The notes beneath the pieces were generated by a model. The model had not been told where the DNA came from. It was given only the letters and a program-made list of their open reading frames with translations, and did no database searches. Source: Artemia franciscana (Eukaryota; Arthropoda; Branchiopoda; Anostraca; Artemiidae). From it: a DNA stretch of 64,000 bases. This document shows positions 1,470 through 41,035 of this stretch, piece after piece. Where the stretch lies: NCBI RefSeq assembly GCF_032884065.1, contig NC_088873.1, positions 32,708,227-32,772,226 on the forward strand. Direction: 5' to 3'. The translations under genes and the position numbers were made by a program. Positions within the stretch are counted from its first letter, which is position 1, and every line of letters begins with the position of its first letter.

Positions 1470-3555
1470 TCATTTCTAGGTTTCTTCATTGCATTGAAAT
1501 AATTTATGAAAATTTCACACTATTAACAAGCAGCTGATTATACCAGCTTATCATTTTGGTCTCTAGGGGGTATTATCGGAGATCTGAAACGATTCTTTCT
1601 GGCAACCGACTTGTAAAAATTTCAGGTAGCTGAAAATATTCTAGGGGACTGTTAGAAAACAGGAAAATACATAGAAAAATGATTCCAATCATCTTACAGG
1701 TTATTGTCTTCTGCTCATGATAGTACCAATTTTGTTCCAAAAGCAATATCCTTCATAGAGTACACTTGTGAAAAAGACCTAGACATTTTCTAAGATTTCT
1801 AAGCAATTAGAGGAAATAGAGCAAAATCCTTTCAAACATTTTGTAGCATCTTCAAGAAGCTATGGCCTGATATTAAAAATGACATCTTCCGCCCATGAAT
1901 ACTTGAGTACTTTTTAAATATAAATTTTCAATTTAACATGGGATTTTCGAGTTCCATCAGTTCACTTAATCCCGGCCTTAAGAAATCTGATTGCATTTAG
2001 TATCAGAGGACCGAGCGTCGTTCTTAATAGCGAATTTTGTACCTAAAATTGGTATAAGGTGTACTCACCCCCTCCCCGAAGGAAATACGATTCCTCCGTA
2101 CCATTGTTCATTCAAGAAACTTTTCGTGAAAATTTTGTAAGTCTAGTCGTATAGAGGTTTATTTTGTTTTGTTACCTAGTCAATTCGTGAATTGGTGTCC
2201 CAAACAATACAAAAGAAGAACAAACTCTTTCTTTACTGAAAATATAAACCAAAATAATAATATTCTTAGCTTAATAGGTTAATAAGACCAGTGTTAAAGT
2301 TCAATTGACCTGCTCTTTCAACCTGCAAGGCTCAATTGACCTGTAAAGTAGCTAATTTGTAAAACAGTCGCTGCATACGAATTTTATTCAAAGAGGAGAC
2401 ACAGAAGTAATCCAGGTCGCAACAACTAAAAATCGTAGTAATTTGTTTGATATTCACTCACCCAGTTCCAACTTTCAGACTTCATTTAGACGTTTTTTCT
2501 GGTTGTTGGGTGTCTAATTTTAGTTAGCAGAGGAAATAAGAAAAATACATTACCATTGATGTAAGATTATTGACGACTAGAATATTATCATAAAAGAAAT
2601 AATGGCCAGGGTTTAGAAAAATTTTGAAATTATGCTATATTTTCATATGGTGCTTACAAACATAATAAAAAGCGAAACAGCCAATGCAAGTGCAAAAAGG
2701 GATTATTTTTTTTTCATTGTATCACAAGAAAACAACGTTTTGGCTGTACTTTTTTGAATGGCATGTATTGAACAATAGCAAAAGAATAAAATAAATTGAT
2801 TCCTCATTCAACACTGTTTTCAAAGACAATAGTCAACACAATGTCAATCACATCCTAAAGTCTAAGCCCTTTTCCCTCAATCTAGTAGATCTAGACATAG
2901 CCCTTGTCTATATAAATAACTTAGCTGATTCTACTGGTTTGAACTATTTTGTAATATTTCTCGTCGGCACTTGGTTGATAATACAAATTTGAAAAAAGAC
3001 TAAGCTCAAATTTTTTATTTTTCTACGATAAATGAGGAGGGCCTTATTCAGCTACTGACATAAACCTAAAAAAAATGATATTTTGGAACAAGGTGACTTG
3101 ATATGTCTCAAACAGTTAAAAAGTGAAAAAAAGTGTGAACAGTAGGAATTTCCCTTTTATAGCTATTTTTACGTATTTTAGGATATATTAAAGGTTGTCA
3201 TATTTAGCTTTGTAGGGGTGACAGACGAGGGCGAAGTTCTGTGAAAATAAAGCAGTGATATAGAGACCTTATCTACTAAACACTTTTAATAGGCCTTTAC
3301 AATTTTGTTCTTTTATGTAGTTCTGTGTTTTCTCTTGTGTTCTCTCCAAGTTCGAAAATATGGTATGATGATAAAATTCAGCACAAAGATAGAGGTATGC
3401 TTCAAAATGAGATCTTCATCCCCTTGCTCTTAAACTTTTAATGCAACGAGTCGCTTTCTCAGCAGAGGCATACCCCACGCCACTTAGTGCGTCCCAAAGT
3501 GACAGATAGGGAGTATTGATTTTGATTACCTATAGATCTTGGTTACCTCAGATGA
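1470..3555. other. AT-rich sequence, nothing identified
   Basis: About 2.1 kb with many stops in all frames. I see no protein motif, no terminal repeats and no simple-sequence array beyond short A/T runs. Confidence 0.5.
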
Positions 3556-3559
3556 GTAA

Positions 3560-4760
3560 GAGGAGCCCCAGCACCGGGTTAAATTACATGGACAAGCAGA
3601 ACACCATCGTGGGAGGATCCTCTACAGGAGAACAACTGTGGAAGGTCGTGGGACCCAGTTTTATGGACAATGGCCTCTGTTAAGGGCCGCCTCGACCCTT
3701 TCTTGATGTCAAACGTCTGAGAACCTTGGGTGCAAAAAACGACCATGAAACATTAGTGGATATTAAAGATCAATTGCAGAATAGCACTACTATGGTGTTC
3801 ACGATAAGCAACAGGGACCAAGTCGGGTTGGTACCTAGTCCGACAAATATTGAAGCCACCAAACAAAGTAAGCATCTGAATATTAGTGCGCGGAATGTTC
3901 AAAGCTGCAAAACGAAATCCACACTGCTACTCCTTCCACGGGAGCTCCTAAAGTATAGAGTCAGCATTTGTTGCGTGTCTGAAACACGAATGAATGAATT
4001 TCTGTCGAAAAAGCCGATTATCAATGATACTTTTATATTCCAGTTTTACAACTTGGGCCCCAGTGATGGTTTGGGCTATCACATAGTTAGATTCTTTGTA
4101 TATACTCCTACTGAAAGTCGCATGGCGACCTGGGAACGAATTTCATTCTTTGTCACGACAGTCAGACTCAGAAGCCGCATAAGTCTCTGCTACTAACCGT
4201 GTCCAACACATTCTGTGCTACTAACGCACTCTTTGAACAAAAGGAACTGCATCGCATTGCATGGTAATTGAACGAGGGCAGAACAAAACCTCAAATGCAT
4301 CACGTCCTAGTGAGCAGGCGATGGAGAAGCTCCTTCTTAGATGCCAGAATATATAAAGGAGCTGATACGGGGTCTTTAAAAGGGTCTGATCATTACCTAC
4401 TTGTATGAAGAGTCCGTCATCGTCTAAACAGATTTTTGTGACAAAAAAGAGGAAATTCCTTTGACCTGTCTAAATTAAGTTGTCCAGAAATCAAACTTGA
4501 GTTCGAGCTGAAGGTCAGCAACTAATTTGAAGTCCAGAACCGATTGTCCGACATGGACCAAGAAGAGGCACAGATGAAAGTTGCTGATTAAATGTAGCCG
4601 AAGAAGTCCTTGAACACGCAAACTGCGAAAAAACAAATCTCGATTTCTGACTGTACCATACAAATAGTTGAAAAGACGTGTTGTGTTTAAGGGCGAATAT
4701 CTCGGCAAGTACAAAGACTCTTGTGATCGGGGAACTGCCCCTCTTCTGCTTGCCAATTAG
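3560..4760 (+). pseudogene. Non-LTR retrotransposon endonuclease relic (LINE)
   Basis: The open frame at 3726-4196 contains ISARNVQSC, then a Leu/Arg-rich helix and RVSICCVSETRM. This is the start of an APE-type endonuclease of the kind annotated 'craniofacial development protein 2-like' (N-V-R...I-S-E-T-R). After frameshifts, 4290-4440 gives VSRRWRSSFLDARIYKGAD and GSDHYLLV, the C-terminal SDH block with the catalytic His. About 4470-4560 gives LEFELKVSN and FEVQNRLSD, the linker towards the RT. Stops at several points make it non-functional. The RT domain does not follow directly. A similar LINE type on the minus strand at 56580-57850 could be another part of the same family. The exact clade (RTE/CR1/L2-like) is not resolved. 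Confidence 0.7.
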
Positions 4761-4857
4761 GGTTACACACTTTTTGGAACACTATATATATAAATGTTCA
4801 GAAACTAGGTCAGTAGATCAGTAGAAACATGTGTTGGTGAATAGAAACATGTCAGGA

Positions 4858-5790
4858 TTATACGTCACTAATTTCTATTGCAAAATTTTTGTTTTCTTCA
4901 CTACAACTTACTGAATGCCAATACAATATATAATTTTGATTTTGACACTTCGAAAACAAAACCAATACTGAATCAGAGATACTATTTCCACTAGCTCTTA
5001 ATTTTTGAATCGCCAAAGCAACATAATTCATGACTTGTTTTTTCCGTGCATGAAGTATTGTGGAGATGAGAGAGATTATTACATCAGGTGCAAATGCCAA
5101 CTATTTTTCGCAAGATAAAATTGGACGGAACAAGCTGTAACTTTATATCAAATATTATATTGGGAGGTAAACATTAAGGTATATTAAATATCTCGTGATT
5201 AACTTTCCCAACCAAGTGTAAATCCTTGGTTGCTGCATCTCAAAGAATATGGCTAGAGTAAGTGTCCGTTTAATATTCCTATCCAGTAGCTATACCTATC
5301 AAAAGCTTATAGGACATTGGAGTCATCAAAATGAATTGTATATAAGTTGCTTAATTTGTAAGATTGCTGATTGTGCTATCCGGTGTTCCGTTTATGTAGA
5401 TACTGATTCGTCAAAACAAATTATGTAGTACACCATTTTCCTAGGATAATCCCTCGGCTTCACTTGGTTTTTCACTGTTAGATTTTTTGACAACGACTTG
5501 TAAATTTATAAATGTGAAAATCAAATGTATGAAACAGTCCTCACTGGAATAAATTTGAAAATATACGTTTTCAGAGAGCGGTTGCTGCGGATACAATTGT
5601 TCATAGTACCCTTTTTTTACACTTACATCAACATTTTCTGCATTGAAAAGATTTATAGTTGAGTTGAATGAAGCATGATATTTTTTATGTGGTAGATATG
5701 CCATTTCTAGGAAAAGAAATTCCATTTTTGTTCTGAGAATTTTTACTTTCTTTCTCTTCTTCAACAAGAGCGATGTTTCACGCTTCCGGC
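4858..5790 (-). pseudogene. Penton-type minor capsid protein of Polinton, broken
   Basis: The frame at 5441-5767 has a Tyr/Pro-rich stretch followed by NVYFQIYSSEDCFIHL and a T-F-I-N-L-Q-V-V-V-K-K strand. This is the order seen in the N-terminal jelly-roll of Polinton minor capsid proteins, where 'I-x-G-S-x-x-F-I-D-L-x-x-T' precedes a V-K-K strand. After a frameshift, 5300-5400 gives SIYINGTPDSTISNL. About 5130-5230 gives HLVGKVNHEIFNIP and LPPNIIFDIKLQLVPSNFIL, the 'G-x-L-H-x-D-x-F ... L-P' block. The frame at 4858-5100 continues with ILHARKKQVMNYVALAIQKL. Order and spacing fit one gene of about 310 codons. The family match is from memory of conserved blocks, without an alignment. Confidence 0.7.
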
Positions 5791-6485
5791 CTGAGTTTAG
5801 ACTGATGAGAGATGAGGTGTTTCTTGACCTTTCTAAACCTTTTCCGCTTTGTCGTGATTTAAATCACTCGCCGAGGGATCACATACTAGACTCGAAATTT
5901 TTTATTATTAGAATTTCATATTAGACTCGAAGACTCGAAACTGGTGCAGTATGAACCGGTGCAGAGCGAGACAGCTTAGCAAACCAATTGCTGAGACAAC
6001 AATTAGACATTGACGAACGACCCTGTAATAGTCTATTCCATGACCCAATTTTCGTGGTCCAAGATTAGTTACATAGAAATCAATATAGAGACAAACATAA
6101 GTATTTTTTCTATTAGCCATCCCAATGAATGGGTCGAAAATGACATACAATCGCAGCCAAAGCTTTTGTTATTGCTAGAGAATCACCCAATTCACTTCTT
6201 AATGTTAATTGACAGAGATCGAAATATAAAGTGTTGACTGGAATATATTGAAGGTACTTTACATTTCACTGGTGAATGTGTTTGTGACTGGTTTTTTGTT
6301 CAAGATTACGTGGAAAGCGGACGTTGGTATTACCGACTATCAATGTCTTGACAAAGGATGGGTAAAGACATATACAATACCATGATGAGAAGCCCGGAGA
6401 TTAGTCTGCACAAGTAATATGATCCTTGCCACAGAAATTTTCTGCTTTGATAACATGATCTTTAAAACCGAGAATCTCACGTAAA
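5791..6485 (-). other. Decayed interval of the Polinton-like element
   Basis: Between the minor capsid and integrase relics. A short stretch at about 6115-6235 (minus) ends in AIVCHFRPI, which resembles the closing strand of some Polinton structural proteins, but it is too short to assign. The rest is stop-rich. Confidence 0.25.
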
Positions 6486-7580
6486 TCATAAACTAGGAAA
6501 TTTTTTTATTCTTAAATGGATTGGTGATGAAAATTGTCCTCTGTACTGTTGAATAGTTGAATATGAAGCCACCCTTTTATCGATTCGCAATTTTTGGTTG
6601 ACATATCGAAAAAGCTCATCCTTCCTTTTATTCCTCGTAGGATATAGTAGGAAATGGGTAGTCATCAGAGTCAAAATTTGCCACCAAACCCTCGTCAGAG
6701 AAGTCAAAAGGTCCTTTTTAATTTCATATGCACAATTATTTCTCAGGAAAAGATTTGTTTAAGACTTTTGAGACTTCAAAGAAATCATTGGACCACAAGT
6801 AACTATACTTTCCAAAAATATTATTTGATTTGAACTGTACCACCAACATTAAATTTTCTCTTCACAATCTTTTCATTAGAATATTGTTTGAGAAAAACGC
6901 CAAGTGTATTGTTACTGTGATGAACTTTAAGAGGACTATAATTGAATAAAGATCGACGAGGACGTTGTTTATAAATTAATATGATTTCATCTAAATCTTA
7001 AATAAAAGCAGGAGTATTTTTCAATGTACAGTATCTTGAAATTAAAATTCGAACAGTTTTTATCAAACGTTCAGCCAATGCCAACTTTATCGGACTGTGA
7101 ATCTGATAGAGTGCTGTATTACGTTTCAATAAACCCTCGGTACACGAGGATTATTAAATTCACTACTTCGATCCGGTTGAATTTCTTTTATAAGAATCTT
7201 GTTCAAAGATAGATTCAAGAGCTCTAGCAATTTTATCGCCTCTCTGTGAATGCAATGGAACGGTATAAGTATAGCGAATAAAAACATTGACTGCAATTAG
7301 AATTTACTTCTACGGTCTATTATGACGTCTTTGAGTCTTGTCTAGAGTCGAAAGATCTGGTAGTAATATATACAAGGGAAAAAGCCTTTAGTTTTTTCGA
7401 TAATGATTACCGTGAACTCTATTATTACGATAAAAAGTGTAGCTGGGTTCATTATGCAAATACTCTCTCGCCAACTTTCTTTTCAATTCCAGTGACTTAA
7501 GCAAGTGTGGTGGGGGAGCTTCATCAATTGTCCTATAAACTCTATTCAAAACTTGAGCCATTTTGAACGTAAACACGGTG
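6486..7580 (-). pseudogene. Retroviral-type integrase (rve) of Polinton, broken
   Basis: The first part (7388-7576) holds the N-terminal region. About 7270-7335 reads ILIAVNVFIRYTYTVPL, the first catalytic block, where the expected Asp of V-D-V-F-S-R is Asn. About 7160-7190, in another frame, gives DRSSEFNNPRV, the second-Asp block (D-x-G-x-E-F). About 6840-7080 gives LAERLIKT, with the catalytic Glu, then RPRRSLFNYSPLKVH and the KFNVGG start of the C-terminal strand-rich domain. Polinton integrases insert the element into DNA with a 6-bp duplication. At least two frameshifts, an internal TAA and loss of the first Asp show it is dead. The last part (6486-6707) is less clear. Confidence 0.8.
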
Positions 7581-7599
7581 TGAATCGTTCGCTACCCTT

Positions 7600-8252
7600 T
7601 TGCATACTAAATTTGGTGGAAAGATGCTTTCGTTTAATACCTTTTAAATCATTACGCCCACTTGGCGTGCAATCCAAAAACGATAATCCTTTGATATTTC
7701 TACAAATTCTCTTAATCGATTTATAGTTTATTTATTCCCAATAAGACTTTTTAAAAAGTTTGATGACTTTGAAAATTTATATAAACGACTATCAAATGAT
7801 TCAAGTCTTTTAAGGTTTGCTATCAAATCTGATACCAAATAAACTTAATATTAACTCTTGCCGTGGATTATACCATTACCCTTTTTGTCATCAATTTGTA
7901 CATGTTCATTTTCAGTGAGATAAGTCATGATTCTTTTACTGTTCTCACGATACAAACGAGGCATTATGTCTACAACACTTAATGAGAAATTTGATAATTC
8001 TTCATCTTGTTTTGGCATTTTCAAAGTTCCAGAACTTTCATAAGTTGGACGTTGATCAATAAAGTTCACTTTAAGCAGTTTTTCACGGAAGTGTTTACTC
8101 CTATTGGCACGTCGAAGAGCATTTTGAAGCAGAGTTAATTTTTCATCATCGGTAGCTGTTTTATTGTTAATAAACTTATCAAGATTATCTACAAAGCGCT
8201 CTTTTCGTGAAAGAGCAAGTTCAATTGGCGTCAGTTTTTAGGGTTTAGCCAT
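7600..8252 (-). pseudogene. Small Polinton-type ORF with basic N-terminal helix region
   Basis: ATG at 8252-8250, then MAKP, a TAA, and a continuous frame beginning KLTPIELALSRKERFVDNL. It runs through an Arg/Lys-rich segment to VVDIMPRLYRENSKRIMTYL and NGIIHGKS, ending at 7851. This pattern (a 'P-x-x-Y-R-x-K-A-x-x-L-L-x-x-L' helix followed by a short beta segment with G-x-I) is a recurrent gene beside capsid and ATPase genes in Polintons, with unknown or minor-capsid-associated function. After a frameshift, 7740-7800 gives FLKSLIGN, which may be the C-terminal part. The start overlaps the upstream small ORF by 9 nt. The family assignment is moderate. Confidence 0.55.
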
Positions 8253-8556
8253 CTAGAGAGAAGTTTCTATAAGTCCCGCAATTATCAGCAGTAACAATCG
8301 GCAGTAAACTAAAGTCCGCTTGAACAAGCAGTTTTCTTCTAAAATCTTTTTCCTGCTTTTTTCAAGATAGGGCACGTTAAAGTGAACGAACTTGCTTTGT
8401 CTATTCCCTAACACCTTTTGACAGTTGAACATTGCCTCCAGTTAAATTTAAACAAAGCTCATATAGGATATTTATGAATTCATTGTCAATACCATGTTTT
8501 AGTATAGCCTTTCTAAGCCGTGGTTTTACCAAGGGAGAAAAAATGTCCAATTTCAT
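8244..8556 (-). pseudogene. Small conserved Polinton ORF (L-x-x-A-I-L-K-H type)
   Basis: From an ATG at 8556 the frame reads MKLDIFSPLVKPRLRKAILK, then HGIDNEFINILYELCLNL and TGGNVQLSKG before a TAG. Later pieces include RKLLVQADFSLLP. In Polintons, and some adenovirus-like elements, a short gene has the order 'L-R-K-A-I-L ... E-I-x-x-N-x-L-x-G-N-V-x-L-S ... K-x-x-L-L-V-Q-K-G-G-F-L'. The match over this order is good, though the glycine pair after VQ is lost. The function of the family is not established. Stops follow codon 50, so it is inactive. It lies between the ATPase and the next small ORF, all on the minus strand. Confidence 0.6.
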
Positions 8557-8592
8557 GTAGCTTCATCAGTGCCATGATCCCCACTAATAACC

Positions 8593-9215
8593 TTATTTAA
8601 TATTCACAGGTAGATATATAGTAATTTCATTGTCAAAAATATCCGTAACTACACCTAACTCTTCGGGCTTGTTTTTATTGAGACCCAAAAAGATTTATCT
8701 AGAAGGTTTATTTGTAGCTTGATTATATGCCGAGTGTAAAAATTCACCGGAATATGTTTGCTTGTTTAAAGTTTCTTAGAGAACCAGAACCGCGGACATC
8801 CACTATACATGATATAGTAAGTACAATTCAATGCAAGTGTTCTCATACATTTACTCTGATGAAAGAGATTATGCAGAACATCTGTTAAGGAAATTTCTCA
8901 TGATGATACTGGACAATGAATAATTGTAACATCTCTTGAAACCATTCTTCACTTGATGCAGCTAAATAATCAATAATCAACCATGAGTTTGGCTCAATAA
9001 CATTAAGAACGTCCAGTTCTCGTAGGAATATTGTATCTCGTGCAATAGTCTTTATTTTATCATAGGACTCTTGCCATACATTATAGCAATAAAAGATATG
9101 TTTTGTTTTTTTTTAAAAACATTTTACCAAGATTTTAAATTATTTTCGTTAAAACTGCTGTTTGGCTAGACATTGATGCTCCACCAAAAAATTATCTTAA
9201 TGGCGTTTTAAGTAG
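8593..9215 (-). pseudogene. A32-like DNA-packaging ATPase of Polinton, broken
   Basis: About 9125-9190 reads FFGGASMSSQTAVLTKI, at the position of the Walker A loop, but the conserved Gly-Lys is Ser-Gln. Next comes HIFYCYNVWQESYDKIK, the 'Y-x-Y-x-x-W-Q-x-x-Y' strand, then SWLIIDYLA at Walker B (second acidic residue replaced by Tyr) and LFIVQYHHEKF, the 'L-F-x-x-x-S-H-H' block. In the neighbouring frame LHNLFHQSKCMRTLALNC is the 'Q-N-L-F ... R-T-x-x-L-N' sensor block. GEFLHSAYNQATNKP and the end TIYLPVNIK (TAA at 8595-8593) complete the family order. These ATPases translocate DNA into capsids. Both nucleotide-binding motifs are damaged. Confidence 0.8.
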
Positions 9216-9833
9216 ATACATACTCCTCCAATGTCGAGATACAACTAACCGAGCCTAACCTTAGTCTTTTCAATAAATACTCAAAAAACAGAATAGATGG
9301 TTTCTTTAATACAAAATAAATGTACTACATATTTTTGAAGCATATTTACATAAGCACAAGTCAAAAACATATAATAGGCACTTAAATAAAGATTTACATG
9401 GACATAAAAACAACTAAAAAAGGACACACCCGGAGGACCGGATCCTCCGGAGAACGTGGTGGCTAGGGAAAGACGATGATGGTAAATTAATAATATAATA
9501 TGAATCAATTTTTAAAACATTGATTCGGGTTTACGCAAAAAAAGATATATAAATATAAATAAAATAAATAAATATGAATTAGAAAAATATTTGAAAAGCA
9601 CTACTTATAAAACGACTAGAAAACACATATTGCTGAGCTGGAGACTCATCAGGCCCCTCCCACTAACTATTTAGCATTTTCCTGACCGAGAGACCGTCTT
9701 TAATCTGCACCTATTCCTCAATCTGAAGTAAGATAGTGACCATGTGGTAGTACCTTCTCACCGTCTGTGCTTACAGTCACTTTGTCCGATATGGCTGATA
9801 TGGCATTTTTCCTCGGCTCAAACTGCATAGTTT
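9216..9833. other. Spacer with a GC-rich hairpin
   Basis: AT-rich sequence between the polymerase and ATPase relics. At 9430-9450 there is a perfect 8-bp stem (CCGGAGGA / TCCTCCGG) with a 5-base loop, conspicuous in AT-rich surroundings. No coding motif seen. Confidence 0.4.
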
Positions 9834-12800
9834 CTAAATTTTAAAGAGCAATTCGCCATGAACTTCGCCCTTTAGAGCTAAATTATTTTCAACAAAGTTA
9901 CTATTAACACTCATATCGAAATTTTTCTTACTTACTGTGAAGGCCCCGCCATGCAGAATTTTTGATATCCTCATTGTTTGTTTACACAGATTGAACCTTC
10001 GGACCTGAAAGTACACCAAGGGAAATCAACTCGCTCCCCGTCTCAGATTTTACAAATAACATCTTGTTTGAGGCCTTACGCTTCACTAGCTCCGGGTAGA
10101 TGAACACGTTCCATTTGGCGTAGTCCATTTGAGAGTTAATGTGCTCGCCACTTTTCCAATTGTCTTTTCAGTTTTAACATTAACAGGAGGGAGTCCTTAT
10201 CTCCATAATAAACTTAAACTTATCCCTCCCCCAGCCATTGGAGCTTCCACACATTGTAATAAATTTCCAGCACGAATTTTTTGAAATTTCTAAAATGAAC
10301 CTGCCAGCGGCAATATTCTTATTTAATTTTATGTTTGTATTTATCTATGTAAGAGGACCATATTTGAGACTATGATCGTGAAAGATATGAAATTCGGATC
10401 TGCGATGATTTGGGTACATTCATTTGGGTCAGTCACAACGTCACAACGACTCCAAATGCGCACTCTCTCGCATATTTTATCAAAGGCCAAATTTAAAATG
10501 AGTATAAAGATTTCTTTTTCGATCTTTGTTTTTGCCTCAGATTGTTTACTGGCTAAAGTGTCAATAAATATCTTCATATATGACGTGTGATCAAACTGGA
10601 GGGCTCTATAAATCTTTGAGACATTGAAACCGTTGGAGAGCATCCTCCACAAAAGAACGTGATGTGCAACAGTATTCTGTTTCGGATGAAGCTCGGCAAT
10701 ATGCTTTTCTTTTGAAGGTATCCAGTATATACCCTCAGTCTCCACCAAAGATAAATTAGAGGAACTCAATGAGTCTTAAGGCACCGGTCTAGTTATGCAC
10801 GAGAAAACACAATCCTTTATCGAGTCATGAAGCTCCAAATGAATTTCAACATCAATTTCGAAAAAAATGTATGTGGTTCACTCTAATCAACAGTGGCAAT
10901 ATTGGGAGATTCGGAGTAGAAGAAGTTGCCAGCCATTTATAAATCCCACATGGCAAAGAGAAGTGGGACATTGCCGAAGGATTAAGGGAATTTATATTGA
11001 AAAAACGGCATTCGTCTTTTTACCTCTGCTTTGTCCAGTCCAATCAGTTTCAAGGATACGATTCCCCTGAAAAATATCCCCACGCCTAATGGATCTCTCT
11101 ACAAAGAAGTGCTGATCCACATTGGTGGTAACACCCATTTTTTCATCACTGATTTTAAGAATTCAATCCATCACCAGAGGACAAGTTGAAAAATAATTCA
11201 CCAATTTTAACCCAACTTCTTCATATTTTACCATGATTTTACAAACAATATCCAACAATGTCAATACATCACTTCCCAGGTACATTTTACAATAATCCTC
11301 CGAATTTTTACACCCTTCCTTAGCCCAATTTTTTTTTACAAAATTCATAATCGACAGTGGTATACTGACTATCGTGAAGGGAATCATAATATGCTTTGAT
11401 GGACGACTATTTTTCCTCGCGTAGCCTCGAATGGGGGTTGTAGTACTCATATGAGTATATGCCCTTAGATGTTAATATATCATGAAGTTCATCGTTTGGA
11501 TGTCGTTGTTTTAGGATCGGAAAACTATTGAATTCGTCGCTTTTTTGTAATTGAATGAGTTGTCTAAGGGATTTAAGGAAGAAAGTATAAAAAAAAGAAG
11601 AAAGCTATATATAAAAAACGGATGTTATTCAAGTAGGTATTACCATTATCTACTGTTTTCCATTTGAATTCTAGGAAAAGCAACTTTTCAGATGACTTCT
11701 TTAAAATGTTATATGAAAAAGTCCTATCTATCTATGAGTCATCTACAACTTCACCTTTCTGTATAAGTGCCATGGCTGATAATATAAAATTGAAATCATA
11801 ATTGTAATTGTACATTTAAACCGGTAGAAAGTATTGCTGTCAAACAATTACATTACAAGATGTATGTGCCATCCCCCGAGAGTTACTCGCTCTCGATAAA
11901 GTAGGGTTACTTAAGTGTTCGTGGTATTGAACTGCCATATCCCCGATACCCTCAACAAATCTTTTCTTACAGACTCAATACATATCTTTATTTTTTAATG
12001 GCCAACTCGTCTTCTTGTGATAGATTCATTCGAAAATTTGTATTTCGCAGCCGTGAAATTGATTCATTTGTTATTTTAATAAGTGCAACCATAGCTGCAC
12101 CAACAAAATCTTCCCCACCCAGTGAATCAGATACCTCTACCAATTGCATGGTATTGCTGGAGTCTCTTTGCCCTTGGGCGAAAGAGACCTGAATGGCTTC
12201 ATACTCTTTAACACGATTCGTGTTTGATGAATTGCATATGTTCATGAGTTTAGCCTCGATGTCTAAGGCAACCCTGTCTTTCTACAAAAGCGAATTCTGA
12301 AAGTTTTTGAACCGCAAGATGGTATTGTCACCCGAGACCGTCTCAACGGACTGACATACATGGACATGACATACATTACAGTGTCTTGTGTGATGTTTCA
12401 ATCTTAATTCTCTATGTAATCTAGATAAACTCATTGGACAATCGTAGGAAGTCGTCCCTTTATTATACTTGGAACCCTCACTTAAAACCTGACTAATATG
12501 TGGAATGGAAAATAAATTCCAATTTTACCAGGTTCACTGGCAGGCTCGTAAGGAAACTGTACCCAACTTTTCACTGATTCAAGGGACAGAACCCTTACTG
12601 AATATTCTACCCCCTGTTTATCTATAAGTTCTCTCTTTTCATATTCTGTATCGTACTGTAACACTGAAACCGGAATATTTAAATGTTCGTTTGCCCTCTC
12701 AAAAATGTCTATCCCCTTAACTGTTACAGGATATTGCCCCTTCAAACAGTTAAAATCTGCTTCAGGAAAATCTGTGCCCTCCGTACCCCCATTAACAGCC

Positions 12801-12838
12801 AAATATTCCAAATTCATCTTAGTGGCATCCTTTTGCAA
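9834..12838 (-). pseudogene. Protein-primed family B DNA polymerase of Polinton, broken
   Basis: Six blocks in family order, in changing frames. 12482-12838: CLKGQYPVTVKGIDIFERAN, then a strand with IPVSVLQYD, the N-terminal exonuclease-side region. About 12370-12440: H-x4-C-x2-C zinc-finger-like LRLKHHTRHCNVCHVHVC. About 11400-11530: DELHDILTSKGIYSYEYYNP. 11163-11450: EDYCKMYLGSDVLTLLDI, the D-Y-x-x-L-Y-L-x-x-D-V-L block. About 11070-11110: DQHFFVERSIRRGDIF. 10341-10769: VSKIYRALQFDHTSYMKIFI and an altered 'K-L-M-x-N-x-x-F-G-K' helix, then IIADPNFISFTI. About 10190-10213: YYGDKDSLL, motif C with both aspartates. The frame at 9834-10019 is the probable C-terminus. The total, about 1000 codons, is the usual Polinton length. 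Many stops make it inactive. Confidence 0.85.
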
Positions 12839-13049
12839 CTATTTATGTCCTGAGACGAAGACTAAGTACTTGAAGCACTGTAAGTCCGTATCGAAATAGA
12901 AGTGTTGTACACCATGACACCTCCTTAAATCTGCATTATATTTTCTAAAATTCTTTTCCCCCTCCCAACTCTTATAACAAATTCTGTTGAAAATTTGTTA
13001 TTTCAATATCTAAATTTTCCATAAATAGAACAACTGACCCGCTCCCATA

Positions 13050-13514
13050 TTAATTATGATTTTCTACCCTATTAAAAATAAATCCCACCCGATCCCAAAA
13101 AACACCCTTAAAATTATTTAGGTCCGGCTGAACCGCCCGCATTTTCGCTTTTAGGTATTGCGCGTAGACATCATCCTTCTTTTCATTAAATTTTTTTAGT
13201 GCCATGGATTCTTTCACACTGTCCCAAGCCCCCCCCCGAACGTGGTTTTCGAGCATTGCCCGAGTCTTGCTGAAATAGCGATGTGCTGTGTCGACCAGAT
13301 CCAAATAGCTACTACAACTTGTGAGAGTGTTGAAAGGGTCTCCAAACTCAGCTCTAAAAAGATAAATCTTGCGCAAAGAGGTATCAGCTAAATAAAAATC
13401 AGGTAAAACAGGGGGTGAGCCAGTACCAACTTGTTCTGGTTCCTTCATAACATTGTGAGGGGCGGGAACCTGTTCATCTAGCACCCTCTCGACCCCATTA
13501 GGCTGGACTTGCAT
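13050..13514 (-). pseudogene. ORF of unknown function upstream of the polymerase relic
   Basis: A 154-codon frame, the longest uninterrupted minus-strand frame in the element. It has a Pro-rich start (VPAPHNVMKEPEQ), then FYLADTSLRKIYLFRAEFGD, and an alpha-helical, Lys-rich second half ending in RVGFIFNRVENHN. It sits about 210 bp upstream of the first polymerase block on the same strand. It may therefore be the polymerase N-terminal extension or a separate Polinton gene. I do not recognise a domain. Base composition resembles the rest of the element. Confidence 0.35.
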
Positions 13515-13559
13515 TAAAAATTGCCCAAAAATTCAGCATCAAGGCGAAGATCCCTGACG

Positions 13560-15300
13560 AAAGTGTTTAAATCAAAGTTTGGAGTATTTATACTAATTGA
13601 GCTCACCCCAACACTATAATTCCCTTCATGTTCACTTTCCCGTGGTTCTGTACATGCATTGTTGCAAAATTGAAACGGCAATGGCGGTAAGTGAGTCTAG
13701 AAAATAATACGAACTTGTTAGCTCATTGAAACACTCTTGATTTCATCCTTTAGAAGATTTTATATTATGCTCAAAAAGAGAATAGTTAAGAATGAGCCTT
13801 CAGATGCATTGAGACTTCAATATCCCTTAAAGTTATAATGACCATACTTGGGCCTCCAAACGGACCCTTCAGATATATTGAGATCATACAACTACTAGTT
13901 AAGAACTTAATGACCAAAAATTTTTCCATACATTGATGCTTGGGGTCCATAGCCGGTTGTACTCCGAACTGTACATTTTATGACCAAAAATCATCAGAAA
14001 TGTTGTCTCCTTTACGTTCGTATTATGTAGTATTATGTATCAAAGAGTCTTAAAAACTTACTGAAGGGGTGTTGGTGTCCTTTGTGAGGGTTTGCTCCAT
14101 TCTGGTCCTAAGGAGGCTCACGAACTAATCCTCAATCATGCGATCGAAATCCTTTTCGTGCTGAAGTCTTGAAAAAGGATAAAATTTGTTTACTCTCTTG
14201 ATGTATTCATATTTTAAGATATAAAAATGAGTAATAAGCTATGGACCCTCAAATCTCCTTCAGAACTAACAGGCCAGGGCCCAGGTATTATGCTGAAAAG
14301 AATATTATCCTAAGGATCCTCAAGGCCCTCAGGACTAACACTTCAGAGGGTGTTATTAACCTCGAAAAATGGTTCATTTTTATTGTTATGAAAACACTTA
14401 ATGGGTAATATCCACAAAAAACTTCTTCGAAAAACTTCAACACTGAAATGCATTATTTTTTGAAGCTTGAAGATCTTACTTGTTAGCCTGAAAAGAATCT
14501 CTTATTTCCCCGGGGATCTCCCTTCAGAACTGTAGTGCGGGCCCCTGATATTTTTCCTTATTAACAAGTTGAAAAAAAGAAACCTATTGGGCAAAGCCAC
14601 TCAAATCTCCTTCTCATAATAGTTTTCAGAAGTAAAATGCATTATTTTTAGAAGCATGAAGATCTGCGTTGGTTCCTCTTTTGTTATCCTGAAAGGAATG
14701 TGTTATTAATCCGAGGAGCTTTGGCGCCTCACGCGATTCAGAACTAACAGACCCTGGGAGCCCCGTTAACCAAAAAGAATGTGTTACTTTTTAAAGAGAG
14801 GGGGTAGCGTCAATATTCTTAATAATTTCTAGAAAAATTTAGTTTTAGCGAAAAATCCTTCAAAGAATGGATTATTTTTAGGAGCGGTAAATCCTGGTTA
14901 TTTTTGCTTTATTAAGGCGAAATGAATGTGCTACTTTAGCAGTTATGAGGTAGGGGAATGACGCCTTCCTTACACTAGCACCAAACATAGCTACTCAATA
15001 CTTTCCAGTTATTTGCCCCTTTTTTAGCCTGATCAAGAATAGACATTATGCTGAAAAACATTTACTGCTATGTTTTTCCTGGTAAATTATTAAGATTTTC
15101 GAGAAATATAAAAGAATTTACACTTACATTAAGATCAAAAGCTTGCTTGTGGAGGGCCAAAGGGGGGTACATCATGGCCTTGCATGGGGGACCTAGAAGC
15201 TCCAGAAGCTTGACTGTCATGTGGTGCAGGTCTTGAAGTCCCGACGACCTCTTGCATGTGGAGTACAGGTGAGTTATGATTCTCGCCATTTATAGGGACT
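13560..15300. repeat. Diverged tandem repeats, unit roughly 200-230 bp
   Basis: Related phrases recur at 14270-14340, 14470-14540, 14660-14770 and 14880-14940: 'gcctgaaaagaat' followed by a T-rich pair of words, and 'cagaactaacag' or 'aggactaacac' with 'gggccc'-type G/C blocks. Copies are strongly diverged and of unequal length. Small open frames at 15048-15289 on both strands show no motif. Confidence 0.35.
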
Positions 15301-23777: not shown

Positions 23778-24610
23778 TTAACTGCGTAAAACTTGCGAAT
23801 ATACAACATTCTTCGCTGTCCAATTGTCGCTGCATATAAATACATTGTCAGGTTTACCGACCCTCGAACATGCAACGTACAATTGTCCATCAGAAAAACA
23901 ATCAGTATTAAGATCTATACCACATTTTTCTAATGATTGACCTTGAGCTTTGTTAATGGTGATTGCAAATACTAATCGAATTGGGAATTGCAATCTTTTA
24001 AATTGAAAAAGCAGATCCGTTGGAATCATGGGAATGCGAGGAATAAGAACAGCCTCACCCTCATAAGGCCCTGTCAAGATTGTGGCCTCTATTAGGTTTT
24101 CCATTGTTTTTTTACGGCAAGTCGCGTGCCATTGCAAAGCTTTGGTGGGTTGATATTTCTTAAAAGTATTATTGGTACGCCTATTTTTAGTTGTAGCACG
24201 TGTGGTGGAAACCCTGAAGGATCTATGGAATTTAAAAATTCAGATGGATAATTAACCGCTTCATTTGGTTCTAAAACTGTGTCGACTGACTTGTAAAGGA
24301 CTGCCTGGTCTCGAATCTTGGTCAAAACAATATTGTTGATTTCGTGGACGTCTATATTTTTGGGTGCGAGAATCGCTCTTTAACTTAGCCATTTATTATT
24401 TTTATAATTTTTTAGCATATTCGGAAATACTTTTTCAATCAATTCATTTTTGGACGTCACTAAATTACAGAAATCAGCAGGTAGTTGTATACGTCCTGAA
24501 ATTGAGTCTACTGTTTGACCAGAGTCATCGTTTTGCAATCGGACACGCATATTTGTAGTTAATTTTAATATTTTTACGTGTGCCCATAAATTAGAATTTT
24601 TTTAGGCAAG
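23778..24610 (-). pseudogene. Helitron helicase C-terminal part, copy 1
   Basis: 24092-24325 gives VDTVLEPNEAVNYPSEFLNS and GVPIILLRNINPPKLCNGTR. After a frameshift, 23778-24137 gives FAITINKAQGQSLEKCGIDL, motif VI region of PIF1-like helicases, then [16 protein letters not shown] and the C-terminus [10 protein letters not shown] stop lies at 24364-24380. Compared with copy 2 it lacks about 42 bp (around 24505). The intact parent protein would unwind DNA during rolling-circle transposition. Confidence 0.85.
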
Positions 24611-24840
24611 CATTCATTTCGTCTGCAGGAGTTAAACTACGTAAAAATTGCGAATATACAACATTCTTGGCTTTCCCATTGTCTCTGCATATACAAAGCC
24701 GTATGTACTAATAATGACATCATATGCAAACGCTCTTTTTACAAACAAACAAACATGCATACACACAACTCGTTTTTATATAGATAGATAGATAGATAGA
24801 TACAATAGAAATTAACTGCGTAAAACTTGCGAATATAGTT
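24605..24840 (-). repeat. Duplicated Helitron 3' segment (copy of 23607-23812)
   Basis: Nearly identical to 23607-23812, including 'actacgtaaaaattgcgaat', the acaaa-repeat and the (GATA)n. It marks the right unit of a tandem duplication of about 1.03 kb, whose right unit has lost the part equivalent to 23815-24185. Confidence 0.85.
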
Positions 24841-25306
24841 GTAGCACGTGTGGTGGAAACCCTGAAAGATCTATGGAATTTAAAAATTCAGATGGATAAT
24901 TAACCGCTTCATTTGGTTCCAAAACTGTGTCGACTGACTTGTAAAGGACTGCCTGGTCTCGAATCTTGGTCAAAACAATATTGTTGATTTCGTGGACGTC
25001 TATATTTTTGGGTGCGAGAATCGCTCTTTCACTTAGCCATTTATTATTTTTATAATTTTTTAGAATATTCGGAAATACTTTTTCAATCAATTCATTTTTG
25101 GACGTCACTAAATTACAGAAATCAGCAGGTAGTTGTATACGTCCTGAAATTGAGTCTACTGGGAGCTTTCCGTTTCCAATTGTCAGCAATTGATCTGAAA
25201 ATGTTTGACCAGAGTCATCGTTTTGCAATCGGACATGCATATTTGTAGTTAATTTTAATATTTTTGCGTGTGCCCATAAATTAGAATTTTTCAGGCAAGC
25301 ATTCAT
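24812..25306 (-). pseudogene. Helitron helicase middle part, copy 2, with internal deletion
   Basis: An open frame from MNACLKNSNLWAHAK through [20 protein letters not shown] to GFPPHVLQL, then directly YSQVLRS. The jump from PPHVLQL to the protein C-terminus removes about 120 codons including motif VI. The upstream end joins the N-terminal ORF within a few bases of shared sequence (GACGAATG at about 25305), which in an intact element lie more than 1000 codons apart. Confidence 0.85.
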
Positions 25307-26012
25307 TCGTCTTCAATGGCTCTGGTGGTGCAGCCAATAGAGGAAGTTTAACTTTTCCTGAGGCGCAACACATTCCCATTGTTTCACCATTGAATTTCAA
25401 GGCCTTGCAATAGGGACAAATTTTAGACATTGTCCCGATTTGAACACATCTACTCAAGCTATAATCATCGACTGGGTTGTACCTGAATGCCAGGCGATAA
25501 CTTTCAGGTTGCTCTGATTCCTCGGCACGCTTTCTTTTCTTACTTTCTCTATAAGCAGCAAGCCTGTTTTCTTGCTGTTCTTGTGATTCCTCGGCACGCT
25601 TTCTTTTCTTACTTTCTCTCGGCAAGCTTTCTTTTCTTACTTTATCTATCAGCAGCAAGCCTGATTTCTTGCTGTTCTTGTAATTCCTCGGCACGCCTTC
25701 TTTTTTCACTTTCTCTTTTAGCAGCAAGTCTGCTTCCGCGTTGCTCTGGTAGTTCCTCGGCACGCTTTCTGTTCTTTTTTCTTTATCAGCCTCAAGCCTG
25801 TTTCCTTGCTGTTCTTTTGATTCCTCAGCACGCTTTCTGTTCTTTCTTTCTCTATCAGCCTCAAGCCTGTTTCCTTGCTGTTCTTTTGATTCCTCGGCAC
25901 GCTTTCTTTTCTGACTTTCTCTATCAGCAGCAAGTTTTTTGGCATAGACTCTTTGAGCATCTTCATCGGCTTTTGCCATGGTAAGTTCATCAGTCATTGT
26001 AAACTTAAACAT
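25281..26012 (-). pseudogene. Helitron N-terminal ORF with charged repeats and zinc motif
   Basis: From MFKFTMTDELTMAKADEDAQ the frame has about seven units of roughly 24 residues of the type KRKRAEESKEQQGNRLEADR, some shifted out of frame and back. It ends with SKICPYCKALKFNGETMGMC and CASGKVKLPLLAAPPEPLK. The C-x2-C...C-C segment before the Rep domain is typical of animal Helitron proteins. The Lys/Arg/Glu-rich repeats probably form a nuclear-localised coiled coil. The frame leads straight into the helicase fragment, so the Rep domain is deleted. Confidence 0.8.
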
Positions 26013-26177
26013 TAATAGATTTCTACGTGAACATATGTCTTAAATATCTTGAATGACGTCACCGTCAAAGCAAAAATGACGACAACTAATTTCATGACGT
26101 CAGTCAACACAGAAACATGACGTCACCTGATCCACAGACAGACACACAGACAGACAACTTATTTTTATATATATAGA

Positions 26178-28709: not shown

Positions 28710-30601
28710 TACAGTTTCTTCTTTAGTTTTTTTTCTTTTTCAGTTTTTTATTTTTTTAGTTTCTTCTTTTTATTGATTTGTTTTCTTCAATTTGTCAATG
28801 TTCATTCTAACATTGACACTTGGAAAAATCTTTACGTGCCAAGCATGCTAAAGCTCCAACAATTTATATTAAACCTCAAAATTTGGGGTATCTGTTTTAA
28901 GGTTTTCGAATTACTTTAATCTATTGTCAAAATATATTGAAATATTTGTGCAATTCCCAGTTTTTTTAGTTGTTTCTTTTTTTTAGTTTTTGTTTCACCA
29001 ATACGTCGTTGATATGTATGCTAAAATTGAATCAAAACGTTTGCTATATATCCGCCTGAATCAGACCAACCTCCGCTCTGAACAATATATTCATTTGCGA
29101 GATGCAGTTATAAATGACGGTAATACCACAAACGTGGGAAGATTAACAATTTTACCTTCGTCATATGCTGGCAGTCCCCGTCATATGCATGAATATGCTC
29201 AAGATGCTATTGCGTATGTTCGTCTCTATGGTCGTCCAGATTTATTTATTACATTTACATGTAATCAATCTTGGGACGAGATACAGCAGCTTTTACTTCA
29301 AGGACAATCGGCGGTTCATAGACATGACATTACGGCCCGTGTCTTCCGGCAAAAGTTGAAATCACTGATAAACTACATAGTAAAACTTGAAGTGTTTGGG
29401 TCAGTGCGATGCTGGATGTACTCAGTGGAATGGCAAAAACGAGGTTTGCCACACGCACATATACTAATCTGGCTACATAAAAAAATTACTTCGAACGAAA
29501 TTGATGATGTGATTTCCGCTGAAATACCTGATGAAAATGTCGATAAGGGGTTACATGATATTATTGTAAAAAATATGATACATGGACCTTGCGGTGCACT
29601 GAACGAAAATTCACCATGCATGGCCAAAGGAAGGTGCACAAAGCAATATCCTCGACTTTTAGTATCAAACACAATTACTGGCAATGATGGTTACCCACAA
29701 TATAGAAGAAGATCAACTGAAGGTGGCGGTAAAACAGCAATAATAAAGAAGCGTAAAGGTACCACCAACGAAGTAAATAACCCGTGGGTTGTTCCATATT
29801 CCCTGTTATTATCAAAAACATTTAATGCACACATAAACGTTGAATACTGTAACTCCGTAAAGGCAATCAAATACATATGTAAATACGTCAACAAAGGCAG
29901 TGACATGGCAGTTTTTGGCTTGCAGCCCGAAATCAAAGATATCGACGAAATCGTACAATATCAGGCTGGAAGATACATAAGCAGTAATGAAGCTGTTTGG
30001 CGAATTCTTTCATTTCCGATACATGAACGTAGTCCAGCTGTTGTTCACTTAGCGGTACATTTACAGAATGGTCAACGTGTTTATTTCTCGGAAACCAACG
30101 TGCAACAAAGAGCCCTGAATCCACCAGATACAAAGTTAACCGCTTTCTTGTCGCTTTGCAAAAATGATTCTTTTGCAAAAAAACTGCTGTATACTGAAGT
30201 GCCTTCGTATTACACGTGGAATACTAAAAATAAAGTATTTGAACGTCAAAAACAGGGTAAGTCAGTCGACGGCCAACCTACCATCTTCAAAGATACCACG
30301 TTAGGAAGACTCTACACCGTTCACCCCAATCAACATGAATGCTTCTTTCTACGCCTGCTTTTGGTGAATGTACCCGGTCCGACATCCTTTGAGTATTTGA
30401 GAACTGTAAACGGTACTATACATGACACTTACCGTAGTGCATGCCAAACTCTGAATTTATTGGAGAATGACCAACACTGGGATAACTGCATCAATGACAC
30501 ATGTGAAACGTCAACTCCAAGTCAAATTCGCGCATTGTTTGGCATCATTTTAACAACTTGCTCTCCATCAGCTCCTACAGAGTTATGGGAAAAAGTCAAA
30601 A

Positions 30602-32188
<1,587 letters not shown>

Positions 32189-32460: not shown

Positions 32461-32639
32461 ATACCTGTGTCCTGGTCGTCATTTTTATTCCCTGTGTCCC
32501 GGTCGTCATTTGTGTCCCGGTGTCCCAGTCTGTAATTTCTCTTTGAGTGTCCCGGTCGTTATTTATATTCCCTCTGTCCCGGTCGTCATTTGTGTCCCGG
32601 TCTGTAATTTCTCTTTGAGTGTTTATTCTTTTTAGTATT

Positions 32640-34109
32640 TTTTAGTTTTTTACATTTAACTAAAAAAAGGCAAAAACTACAAAAAAACTAAAAACTAATA
32701 AAAAAAGTAAAAAAGCTAAAAAACAAAAAAACTAAAAAAAAACTAAAAAAAGGTAAAAAACTAAAAAAAATAAAAAATAAAAAAAAAAATAAAAAAAAGG
32801 AAAAAACTGAAAAATAAGCTAAAATAAAGGTAAAAACCAATAAAAAACTAAAAAGAAAAAAAGGAAAAAACTAAAAAAAATTTTCATCTAAAAAACTAAA
32901 AAAGGTAAAAACTAAAAGAACTAAAAAAGAAAAAAATAAATGACGACACTCAAAGAGAAAGCGACCAGGACAAAAGGAATGTTCGATTAGCAATCAACAA
33001 AGCACCGGGACACAGGGAGTATAAATGACGACCAGGACATAAGTAAAAAAAAAAATAAAAAACCTAAAAAAAAGGTAAAAACCACAAAAAAACTAAAAAG
33101 AAAAAAAAACTAAAAACTAATAAATAAACTAAAAAATCTAAAAATCTAAATAAACTAAAAAAGAAAAAAAAAGGAAAAAAATAAAGGAGAAAAACAAAAC
33201 TTAAAAAAAGGCAAAAACTACAAAAAAAACTAAAAACTAATAAAAAAAGTAAAAAAGCTAAAAAACTAAAAAAACTAAAAAAAACTAAAAAAAGGTAAAA
33301 AACTAAAAAAAATAAAAAATAAAAAAAAATAAAAAAAAGGAAAAAACTGAAAAATAGGCTAAAATAAAGGTAAAAACCAATAAAAAACTAAAAAGAAAAA
33401 AAGGAAAAAACTAAAAAAAATTTCATCTAAAAAACTAAAAAAAACTAAAAAAGGTAAAAACTAAAAGAACTAAAAAAGAAAAAAATAAATGACGACACTC
33501 AAAGAGAAAGCGACCAGGACAAAAGGAATGTTCGATTAGCAATCAACAAAGCACCGGGACACAGGGAGTATAAATGACGACCAGGACATAAGTAAAAAAA
33601 AAACTAACAAAACTAAAAAGAAGGTAAAAACTACAAAAAAACTAAAAAGAAAAAAAAACTAAAAACTAATAAAAAAACTAAAAAATCTAAAAATCTAAAT
33701 AAACTAAAAAAGAAAAAAAAAGGAAAAAAATAAAGGAGAAAAACAAAACTAAAAAACGAATGTATATACAGACCGGGACACCGGGATACAAATGACGACC
33801 GGGACACAGGGAATATAAATGACGACCGGGACACAGGGACACAACTACAACGGGGACACCGGGGGAAACAGGGGGATATAAATGACGACCGGGACACCGG
33901 GACAGGGAATGGTCGATTAGCAATCACCATCAACAAAGCTCAAGGGCAATCATTAGAATCATGAGGTATAGATCTGAATACAGATTGTTTTCCCATGGAC
34001 CATTATATGTTGCATGTTCAAGAGTCGGTAAACCTGACAGTCTATTTATATGCAAAGACAATGGGACAGCAAAGAATGTTGTATATTCGCAAGTTTTACG
34101 TAGTTAAAA

Positions 34110-34203
<94 letters not shown>

Positions 34204-36830: not shown

Positions 36831-37017
36831 ACCTTTTTCTTTTTTTAGTTTTTTTTCTTCTTTATTTTTCAGACGTCATATACAAACCCCCAAACATACG
36901 AAAATACATACATACAACTAATTTTTATATATATTGCCACTTTGCTGTAATAATTATGCGGTAATTCGGTTGGCATATGACATAATTGAGACAATATGTT
37001 CTTCTTATTTCTAGTTA

Positions 37018-37225
37018 CCGCAGCATATTGGCTTTGATGCTCTCTTTCAAATTCGAAGGATGTGGGTTCAAGTCACTCTGAGGTAAAATTAGGTTTCCTG
37101 GTTTTCAGTACCCCTCCCCCTCCCTGGACAAAAATCTTTTTTAGTTACCGCAGCATATTGGCTTTGATGCTCTCTTTCGAATTCGAAGTATGCGAGTTCA
37201 AGTCACTCTGCGGTAAAATTAGGTT
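37018..37225 (+). repeat. Tandem tRNA-like units (two copies, about 120 bp)
   Basis: Copy 2 (37144-37213) starts TTACCGC and ends GCGGTAA, a perfect 7-bp acceptor-like pair. It has a GCAT...ATGC D-arm-like pair and a B-box-like GAGTTCAAGTCAC. The anticodon arm is poor and the loop lacks a normal anticodon. Copy 1 (37018-37088) is the same with a few changes (TTACC / GGTAA). Both are followed by 'aattaggtttc' and C-rich sequence. These may be tRNA-derived SINE heads. Confidence 0.45.
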
Positions 37226-37302
37226 TCTTGGTTTTCGGCCCCCCCCTCCCTGTATTTGATTTTTAATGCACCTATCACCGGCAAGGGACATCAGAAACTG
37301 TT

Positions 37303-37494
37303 TTGGAGAAGCTGATTTTAGTTGGCTGGCGCCCAGGTGAGGCTAGGCCTAAGGAAAACATGCTGTATGCCTCAGCCTTGGATGCTTTGAAAAGATCTCT
37401 AGGCAATCATTTCCCGTATATACAGGCAGCAGATTACAGAGAGGCTTCTTACGAGACTGTTGAGGCTAAACTTAATTCAATGGTCCGTTTTTAA
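37303..37494 (+). pseudogene. ADF/cofilin C-terminal fragment
   Basis: The frame reads LILVGWRPGEARPKENMLYA, then SALDALKRSLGNHFPYIQAA and DYREASYETVEAKLNSMVRF before a TAA. This matches the C-terminal third of ADF/cofilin (twinstar-type), an actin-severing protein: W-x-P-D-x-A-x-x-K-x-K-M-x-Y-x-S-S-x-D-A-L-K, then I-Q-A-T-D and the closing amphipathic helix E-A-x-x-E-K-L. It has no start codon of its own and the N-terminal two thirds are absent. It lies between tRNA-like repeats and the A-rich array inside a Helitron series, so a captured exon or retrocopy fragment is likely. An exon of a real gene interrupted by repeats is the alternative. Coding appears undamaged over 63 codons. Confidence 0.75.
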
Positions 37495-37649
37495 AGCAGC
37501 CCATTAATATTGGTGTTCTTAAGAACACACGCTTGGATATGTACTAACAAAAAAATGTTAGTACACAATAAGATCTCACAGACTCTGCTGAAACGCATTT
37601 TGAAAGCTCATAGAATTTCACTTGTGATGGGTAGGATTGAACCTGCAAC

Positions 37650-39240: not shown

Positions 39241-39444
39241 AGGGAATGGTGAATTAGCAATCACCATCAACAGAGCTCAAGGGCAATCATTAGAATCATG
39301 AGGTATAGATCTGAATACGGATTGTTTTCCCATGGACCATTATATGTTGCATGTTCAAGAGTCGGTAAACCTGACAATCTATTTATATGCACAGACAATG
39401 GGACAGCAAAGAATGTTGTATATTCGCAAGTTTTACGTAGTTAA

Positions 39445-39542
<98 letters not shown>

Positions 39543-39691
39543 CAGGTGGGACATAGGGACACAACTACAATGGCGCGTAACTAATATGGCGCGTAACGAC
39601 TTAACGCGCGCGGGGGGGCTTGGGGGGGGGGCGCGAAGCGCCCCCACCAACTAGGTGTTGGGGTGGCGCGAAGCGCCACCCCAACAGCTAG

Positions 39692-40968: not shown

Positions 40969-41031
<63 letters not shown>

Positions 41032-41035
<4 letters not shown>

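What the first reader, a model, noticed from the sequence alone, without database searches (positions are those of the whole stretch)
4858..13514. Hidden Polinton/Maverick-like virus relic with most of its gene set still traceable
Frame-hopping translation of the minus strand recovers six gene families in about 8.7 kb: family B polymerase, packaging ATPase, two small Polinton ORFs, retroviral-type integrase and penton-type capsid protein. They are masked by frameshifts, so an ORF-based annotation shows only short unnamed frames. It is direct evidence of a past virus-like element in this lineage.
Basis: partly seen in the sequence, partly recalled or inferred. Interest (0 to 1): 0.85.

Follow-up and report, generated by a model that had tools for sequence, protein, structure and literature searches.

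The report
Decayed Polinton provirus in brine shrimp
This is a broken, ancient copy of a virus-like jumping element (a Polinton) in the brine shrimp genome, one of at least a dozen similarly old copies, and it sits in a genome that also holds much younger copies of a related element.

Summary
On the minus strand, pieces of a Polinton/Maverick gene set lie in collinear order: PolB, packaging ATPase, two small ORFs, integrase and capsid genes. 74 of 74 tblastn matches at E<=1e-3 from related frames of the same genome fall there; 21 control sequences gave none. The host is almost certainly Artemia franciscana.

Three corrections. DNA shared with other copies runs from 4,978 to 14,883, further right than stated. 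This copy is cut off inside the capsid gene, has no detected terminal inverted repeats, and lacks the protease that three sister copies keep.

11 of 14 host loci picked as likely members are copies of this family, at K2P 0.27-0.34 from the window. A second family in the same genome is young (coding-block K2P 0.014-0.047), with terminal inverted repeats and a 6-bp target duplication in the copy examined.

Verdict: a real fossil provirus of a known kind. One survey reports Mavericks from all arthropods it examined; my library searches listed no paper on Polintons of Artemia.

The parts
13686..14883 (-). right terminal, probably non-coding part of the element, up to the last base shared with other copies (14115-14502 and 14708-14764 are not shared with the copies examined); contains degenerate direct repeats (14436-14476, 14625-14665, 14866-14885)
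   Evidence: blastn to L039, L040, L043; direct repeats D9/D10
12914..13671 (-). segment upstream of recognisable PolB, holding the longest stop-free frame (160 aa, 13532-13053); shared with other copies, no identified domain
   Evidence: blastn to L033, L038, L043; no Pfam match over cut-off
9733..12913 (-). family B DNA polymerase (PolB) of the Polinton type, broken over three frames
   Evidence: tblastn with host PolB frames, E down to 2e-50, and with P0001, E 7e-57; P0001 and L015 match PF03175 over cut-off; 22 stops inside matches
8796..9224 (-). packaging ATPase (A32/FtsK-like), broken
   Evidence: tblastn with host ATPase frames, E 9e-16; those frames align to the Pox_A32-matching ATPase of L011 at z 8.4 and 11.0, 0 of 300 shuffles, and one carries a P-loop
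8293..8529 (-). small ORF A, broken
   Evidence: tblastn, two queries, best E 3e-7
7686..8252 (-). small ORF B, broken
   Evidence: tblastn with P0005 E 9e-32 and with host frames E 4e-12; 4 relatives in the protein search
6827..7570 (-). retroviral-type (rve) integrase, broken
   Evidence: tblastn E 4e-17 and 3.9e-29; the 370-aa host relative matches rve E 3.6e-10 and Chromo E 9e-6, both over cut-off
   Evidence: tblastn 6499-6134, E 3e-6; extent from the collinear DNA match to L033, whose frame matches the host 272-aa protein, E 1.4e-22
5873..6098 (-). small gene between penton and capsid (pVI-like by recall), broken
   Evidence: by position in the collinear DNA match to L033, which matches the host 148-aa protein at E 1.8e-19; direct tblastn to the window only E 0.4
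4978..5728 (-). capsid protein, most likely major capsid protein rather than penton, broken and cut off (a frame is readable at most to about 4861)
   Evidence: tblastn with P0007, 71% identity over 202 aa, E 4e-88; with the host 431-aa relative E 4e-28

Best explanation
The stretch 4,978-14,883 is a truncated, decayed copy of a Polinton (Maverick). Working copies of this family, by inference from the gene set, copied their DNA with their own PolB, inserted it with a retroviral-type integrase, and carried genes for a virion (packaging ATPase, penton, major capsid protein and, in sister copies, a protease). This copy inserted in an ancestor of Artemia franciscana, lost its left end with the protease and the rest of the capsid gene, and has since collected stops, frameshifts and insertions. 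Shown here: the gene pieces, their order, the decay, the multi-copy family, its divergence, and what sister copies keep. Inferred: past activity, virion formation, the capsid labels, and the cause of the truncation.
For: Collinear minus-strand matches for seven gene blocks with clean controls. 11 of 14 host loci picked as likely members are copies over the same stretch, 54,011 aligned bases in 62 matches, against 0 for the reversed sequence. Copies L034, L035 and L037/L047 continue past the window's break into the rest of the capsid gene and the protease-like gene. A younger sister family in the same genome has the same gene order, and its copy on C583 has terminal inverted repeats with AG...CT ends and a 6-bp target duplication, which ties the gene set to a bona fide Polinton. 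K2P of window to copies is 0.271-0.340.
Against: No terminal inverted repeats or target duplication were found in the window. The host ATPase frames have no Pfam match over cut-off. Capsid and protease labels are weak: Pfam, PDB searches and AlphaFold gave nothing usable for them. Total copy number is unknown, because the genome search was answered only once. The 14 loci were not a random sample.
Confidence: 0.96

Rival explanations
1. One reading: the 4.86-5.86 kb gene is the penton protein.
For: It is a gene of a Polinton gene set in a capsid-like position. No test here gives it a positive major-capsid match: Pfam and PDB searches gave nothing usable, and its relatives do not stand out against the 486-aa capsid candidate of L011.
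Against: Another gene upstream aligns to the 282-aa protein of L011 (253-aa version: z 6.0, 0 of 200 shuffles; 272-aa version: z 5.0, 1 of 300, with another L011 frame second at z 3.6). That L011 protein's only PDB match is chain a6, 'P1', of 6ncl (E 0.012), which I recall as the penton of chlorella virus PBCV-1. The 4.86-5.86 kb family is 431 aa long in a younger copy and stands next to the protease-like gene, the place described for the major capsid protein relative to the penton.
Confidence: 0.2
2. A recently endogenised adintovirus-like animal virus rather than an old element of the lineage.
For: The gene set overlaps that of adintoviruses (recalled; the defining paper is not held).
Against: K2P of 0.271-0.340 to 11 other copies, 46 stops inside matches, truncation.
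Confidence: 0.02
3. The pieces have been kept by the host for a function (exaptation).
For: Some frames of 118-160 codons are still open; third codon positions differ somewhat more than first and second in three coding stretches.
Against: The same excess is expected from constraint before insertion; every one of the seven gene blocks has stops inside its matches. Expression was not tested.
Confidence: 0.03

Closest known systems
Polinton/Maverick elements (class Polintoviricetes)
   Same: PolB, rve integrase, packaging ATPase, two capsid-type genes; the sister copy on C583 has terminal inverted repeats, AG...CT ends and a 6-bp target duplication
   Different: this copy is cut off inside the capsid gene, with no terminal inverted repeats found and no protease
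Young Polinton family of the same genome (L012-L031, element on C583)
   Same: same gene order on one strand; about 25-47% amino-acid identity to the window pieces
   Different: no DNA-level match to the window (0 matches at E<=1e-6); coding-block K2P of the C583 copy to 5 other copies 0.014-0.047; long open frames
Polinton fossils of vertebrate genomes (PMC9004415, passages)
   Same: decayed protein fossils found by protein-level search
   Different: the human ones are described as fragments; here about 9.9 kb of one copy is traceable
Polinton-like virus contig IMGVR_UViG_3300028392_002905 (L011)
   Same: long PolB, rve integrase, A32 ATPase and a penton-like gene; its PolB matches the window, its integrase and ATPase match the host relatives
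   Different: distant, different gene order, mixed gene orientation, environmental contig; its polymerase frame itself has no PF03175 match

Membership tests
[quoted passage not shown]
   family B of the viral type. The protein-primed mode is not shown; weak tblastn matches of P0001 to PRD1-type phage polymerases (54 records at E<=1, best listed E about 0.2) agree with it
Polinton/Maverick | retroviral-type (rve) integrase | tested here: met
   window 7570-6827; relative over the Pfam cut-off
Polinton/Maverick | FtsK/A32-type packaging ATPase | tested here: met
   window 9224-8796; relatives align to the Pox_A32-matching ATPase of L011; relatives themselves have no Pfam match over cut-off; the state of the P-loop in the window was not examined
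Polinton/Maverick | adenovirus-like cysteine protease | tested here: not met
   no match in the window; present in three copies of the same family, L034, L035, L047. The window copy is truncated before it. The protease label is by position and recalled catalytic motif; no Pfam or PDB match
Polinton/Maverick | major (double jelly-roll) and minor (single jelly-roll) capsid proteins | tested here: inconclusive
   two capsid-type gene blocks present; folds not shown
Polinton/Maverick | terminal inverted repeats and 6-bp target duplication (recalled definition) | tested here: not met
   none found in the window; met by the sister-family element on C583. The window copy is truncated, so it cannot meet this as a whole element
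Adintovirus | Polinton-type gene set in an infectious animal virus | not testable with these tools
   defining paper not held; no particle evidence possible

The most novel reading that the evidence does not exclude
Artemia franciscana has been colonised by Polintons at least twice: an old family, of which the window is a fossil, and a young family with terminal repeats, a target duplication and at least one copy in which the genes downstream of PolB are open frames. The young family has transposed so recently (K2P to the C583 copy as low as 0.014) that it may still be mobile, or even packaged, in the germ line of a widely farmed animal.
Probability: 0.35. Interest if true: 0.55.

Novelty: new member of a known kind. 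Interest (0 to 1): 0.36.

Why it matters
It shows that most of a viral gene set can hide from ORF-based annotation, and it turns one fossil into a multi-copy family of measured divergence beside a young one in the same genome. A genome with old and young Polintons side by side lets one ask directly whether these elements keep returning as viruses or persist inside a lineage. The main text of the genome paper holds neither the word Polinton nor Maverick.

Tried and rejected
Pfam scans of single decayed pieces: nearly empty. Viral-contig scans with a window piece, alignments A1 and A2, and a first polymerase motif: no relative. A shorter polymerase motif gave 10 contigs, of which one (L010, extended as L011) matched the window. 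Its integrase and ATPase are too distant to rank high in the window, so in-host relatives had to be used. A scan with its penton-like protein returned only its own contig. Genome-contig scan with A3: none. AlphaFold model of P0007: mean pLDDT 30.4, not used for fold searches. PDB searches for capsid and protease proteins and alignments: nothing usable. Considered and rejected: chance, exaptation, recent virus. No age in years is claimed; half the mean K2P is about 0.15 substitutions per site per copy, an upper figure because part of it arose before insertion.

Tallies: the 14 loci were picked from the 20 weakest of the 44 PolB matches, mostly because they matched the same part of the profile as P0001; they are not a random sample. 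11 are window-family, L041 is sister-family, L045 and L046 matched neither the DNA of the window region nor P0001, P0002, P0003, P0005 or P0007.

Full report
What was claimed.

Is it there? Yes. Stop-to-stop pieces scanned alone against Pfam gave almost nothing. One PolB piece, however, found two database proteins at 64-65% identity, and P0001 matches DNA_pol_B_2 (PF03175) at E 7.8e-10, above the curated cut-off. Small ORF B found four relatives and the capsid piece six. All twelve relatives are unnamed, eleven from ENA and one from JGI; P0007 matches the window at 71% over 202 residues, stops included. An environmental polinton-like contig (L011) with a 1,299-aa polymerase frame, an rve integrase (PF00665, E 6.7e-8) and an A32 ATPase (PF04665, E 5.8e-11) matches the window's PolB in three collinear pieces, best E 1.9e-10. 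Its polymerase frame itself did not match PF03175.

The decisive evidence came from the same genome. A family search found 44 PolB matches (its counts are lower bounds). Open frames beside them match the window in order: PolB, ATPase, small A, small B, integrase, penton-like, capsid. With 62 of 69 query frames (7 AT-repeat frames dropped), 74 of 74 window matches at E<=1e-3 lie in the region on the minus strand, and 21 control sequences gave none. The ATPase identity rests on a P-loop in a relative and on the relatives' alignment to the L011 ATPase (z 8.4 and 11.0, 0 of 300 shuffles each), since the relatives have no Pfam match over cut-off. The integrase relative matches rve (E 3.6e-10) and Chromo (E 9.1e-6), both above cut-off.

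Host. The window lies on contig C11 of a 1.27 Gb assembly of 6,468 contigs. Contig C17 is 45,252,357 bases long, exactly the scaffold N50 in Table 1 of the A. franciscana genome paper PMC11492255 (passages read). That paper gives 1,270,721,445 bases in 6,486 scaffolds and a longest scaffold of 67,337,973, whereas G000 has 1,270,528,402 bases and its C1 is 71,465,782 long, so this is a close version of that assembly and not exactly the one tabulated. The young element on C583 is flanked by arrays with a 113-base period; I recall a 113-bp satellite in this species.

Extent and decay. Eleven of fourteen loci, picked as likely members and not at random, match the window at the DNA level between 4,978 and 14,883, 9,454 of the 10,040 bases examined being covered; the reversed sequence matched none. 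The right part to 14,883 carries degenerate direct repeats and is shared with L039, L040 and L043. No inverted partner was found on the left. The window's capsid gene is cut off near 4,861-4,978, while L034, L035 and L037/L047 continue into its second half and a protease-like gene. The seven gene blocks hold 46 stops inside matches (22, 3, 3, 4, 4, 2 and 8), and the longest stop-free stretch is 160 codons.

Penton or major capsid protein? In the young copies the order after the integrase is a 272-aa protein, a 148-aa protein, a 431-aa protein and a 184-aa protein (lengths from L031). The 253-aa version of the first aligns to the 282-aa protein of L011 (z 6.0, 0 of 200 shuffles), the 272-aa version at z 5.0 (1 of 300; another L011 frame came second at z 3.6, 2 of 300). 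That L011 protein's only PDB match up to E 10 is chain a6, 'P1', of 6ncl, E 0.012, recalled as the PBCV-1 penton; a profile of the aligned family matched nothing. [quoted passage not shown] So the window's 5.7-4.9 kb gene is most likely the major capsid protein, and the penton lies at about 6.60-6.13 kb (upstream end uncertain). Against this: the 431-aa protein gives no usable Pfam or PDB match and none to L011 above noise, P0007 against the 486-aa capsid candidate of L011 reached only z 2.6 with 4 of 200 shuffles as good, that candidate itself has only a sub-threshold Capsid_N match (E 0.028), and the structure model failed (pLDDT 30.4). The label is an inference.

Age and family. K2P from the window to its eleven copies is 0.271-0.340, mean 0.301; between copies (53 pairs with at least 500 aligned bases) the mean is 0.278 and the minimum 0.160. 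For the young family, seven pairs gave 0.013-0.052 over whole stretches, some with flanking repeats; the coding block of the C583 copy alone gave 0.014-0.047 to five other copies. The C583 copy has inverted repeats, about 1.2 kb on one side and 0.8 kb on the other, built of roughly 140-bp units, AG...CT ends and the 6-bp duplication CAAAAG. So one genome holds an old decayed family and a young one with the same gene order but no DNA-level match to it (0 at E<=1e-6). Mismatch between window and copies at codon positions 1, 2, 3 is 0.187, 0.200, 0.286 in the PolB core, 0.210, 0.138, 0.303 in the capsid start and 0.229, 0.256, 0.272 in small ORF B: a modest third-position excess, which suggests a coding past and mostly unconstrained decay since.

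Known or new? Polintons are described by pPolB, rve integrase, Ulp1-type protease, packaging ATPase and two capsid proteins (PMC11071308, passages). A survey lists Maverick among superfamilies present in all arthropods it investigated (PMC6327564, passages), and decayed Polinton fossils are known even in human (PMC9004415, passages). PMC3671162 was seen in passages only. The library searches 'Polinton + Artemia' (one paper), 'Maverick + Artemia + transposon' (four papers) and 'Maverick + Polinton + crustacean' (14 papers) listed no paper on Polintons of Artemia by title or start of abstract, and the genome paper's main text has neither word. Subscription papers and supplements were not searched. 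This is a new member of a known kind.

Noticed in passing
28987-31732 (+) and 23778-26039 (-): Helitron: Helitron_like_N (E 8e-54) followed by PIF1 helicase (E 3e-67) on the plus strand; partial PIF1 helicase pieces on the minus strand.
   Followed up: partly
41467-42720 (+): Open 417-aa frame that looks like a Penelope-type reverse transcriptase by recall; no Pfam match over cut-off.
   Followed up: no
32464-44200: Large A-rich arrays of AAAAAAACT-type units and 27-bp units (ACCGGGACACAGGGAATATAAATGACG type), strong AT skew.
   Followed up: no
L020 (G000:C14:18487300-18497299), 1824-8151 (+) and 8441-10000 (-): Two young Polinton copies meet head-on within small ORF B, a palindrome-like arrangement that might reflect hairpin replication or recombination.
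   Followed up: no
P0008, P0010, P0011 against P0007, P0009 and window 5444-5863: Three of six capsid relatives leave the reading frame at about the same place, which suggests that a defective copy was itself multiplied; sequencing errors in short contigs are not excluded.
   Followed up: no
L039 7280-8512 and 8779-9998: 1.2-kb direct duplication (83% identity) including the right terminal region in one old copy.
   Followed up: no
3567-4196 (+): Dispersed repeat shared with L019 (3567-3684) and a 170-aa frame (3684-4196) resembling a LINE endonuclease by recall, to the left of the break in the capsid gene; no Pfam match over cut-off.
   Followed up: partly
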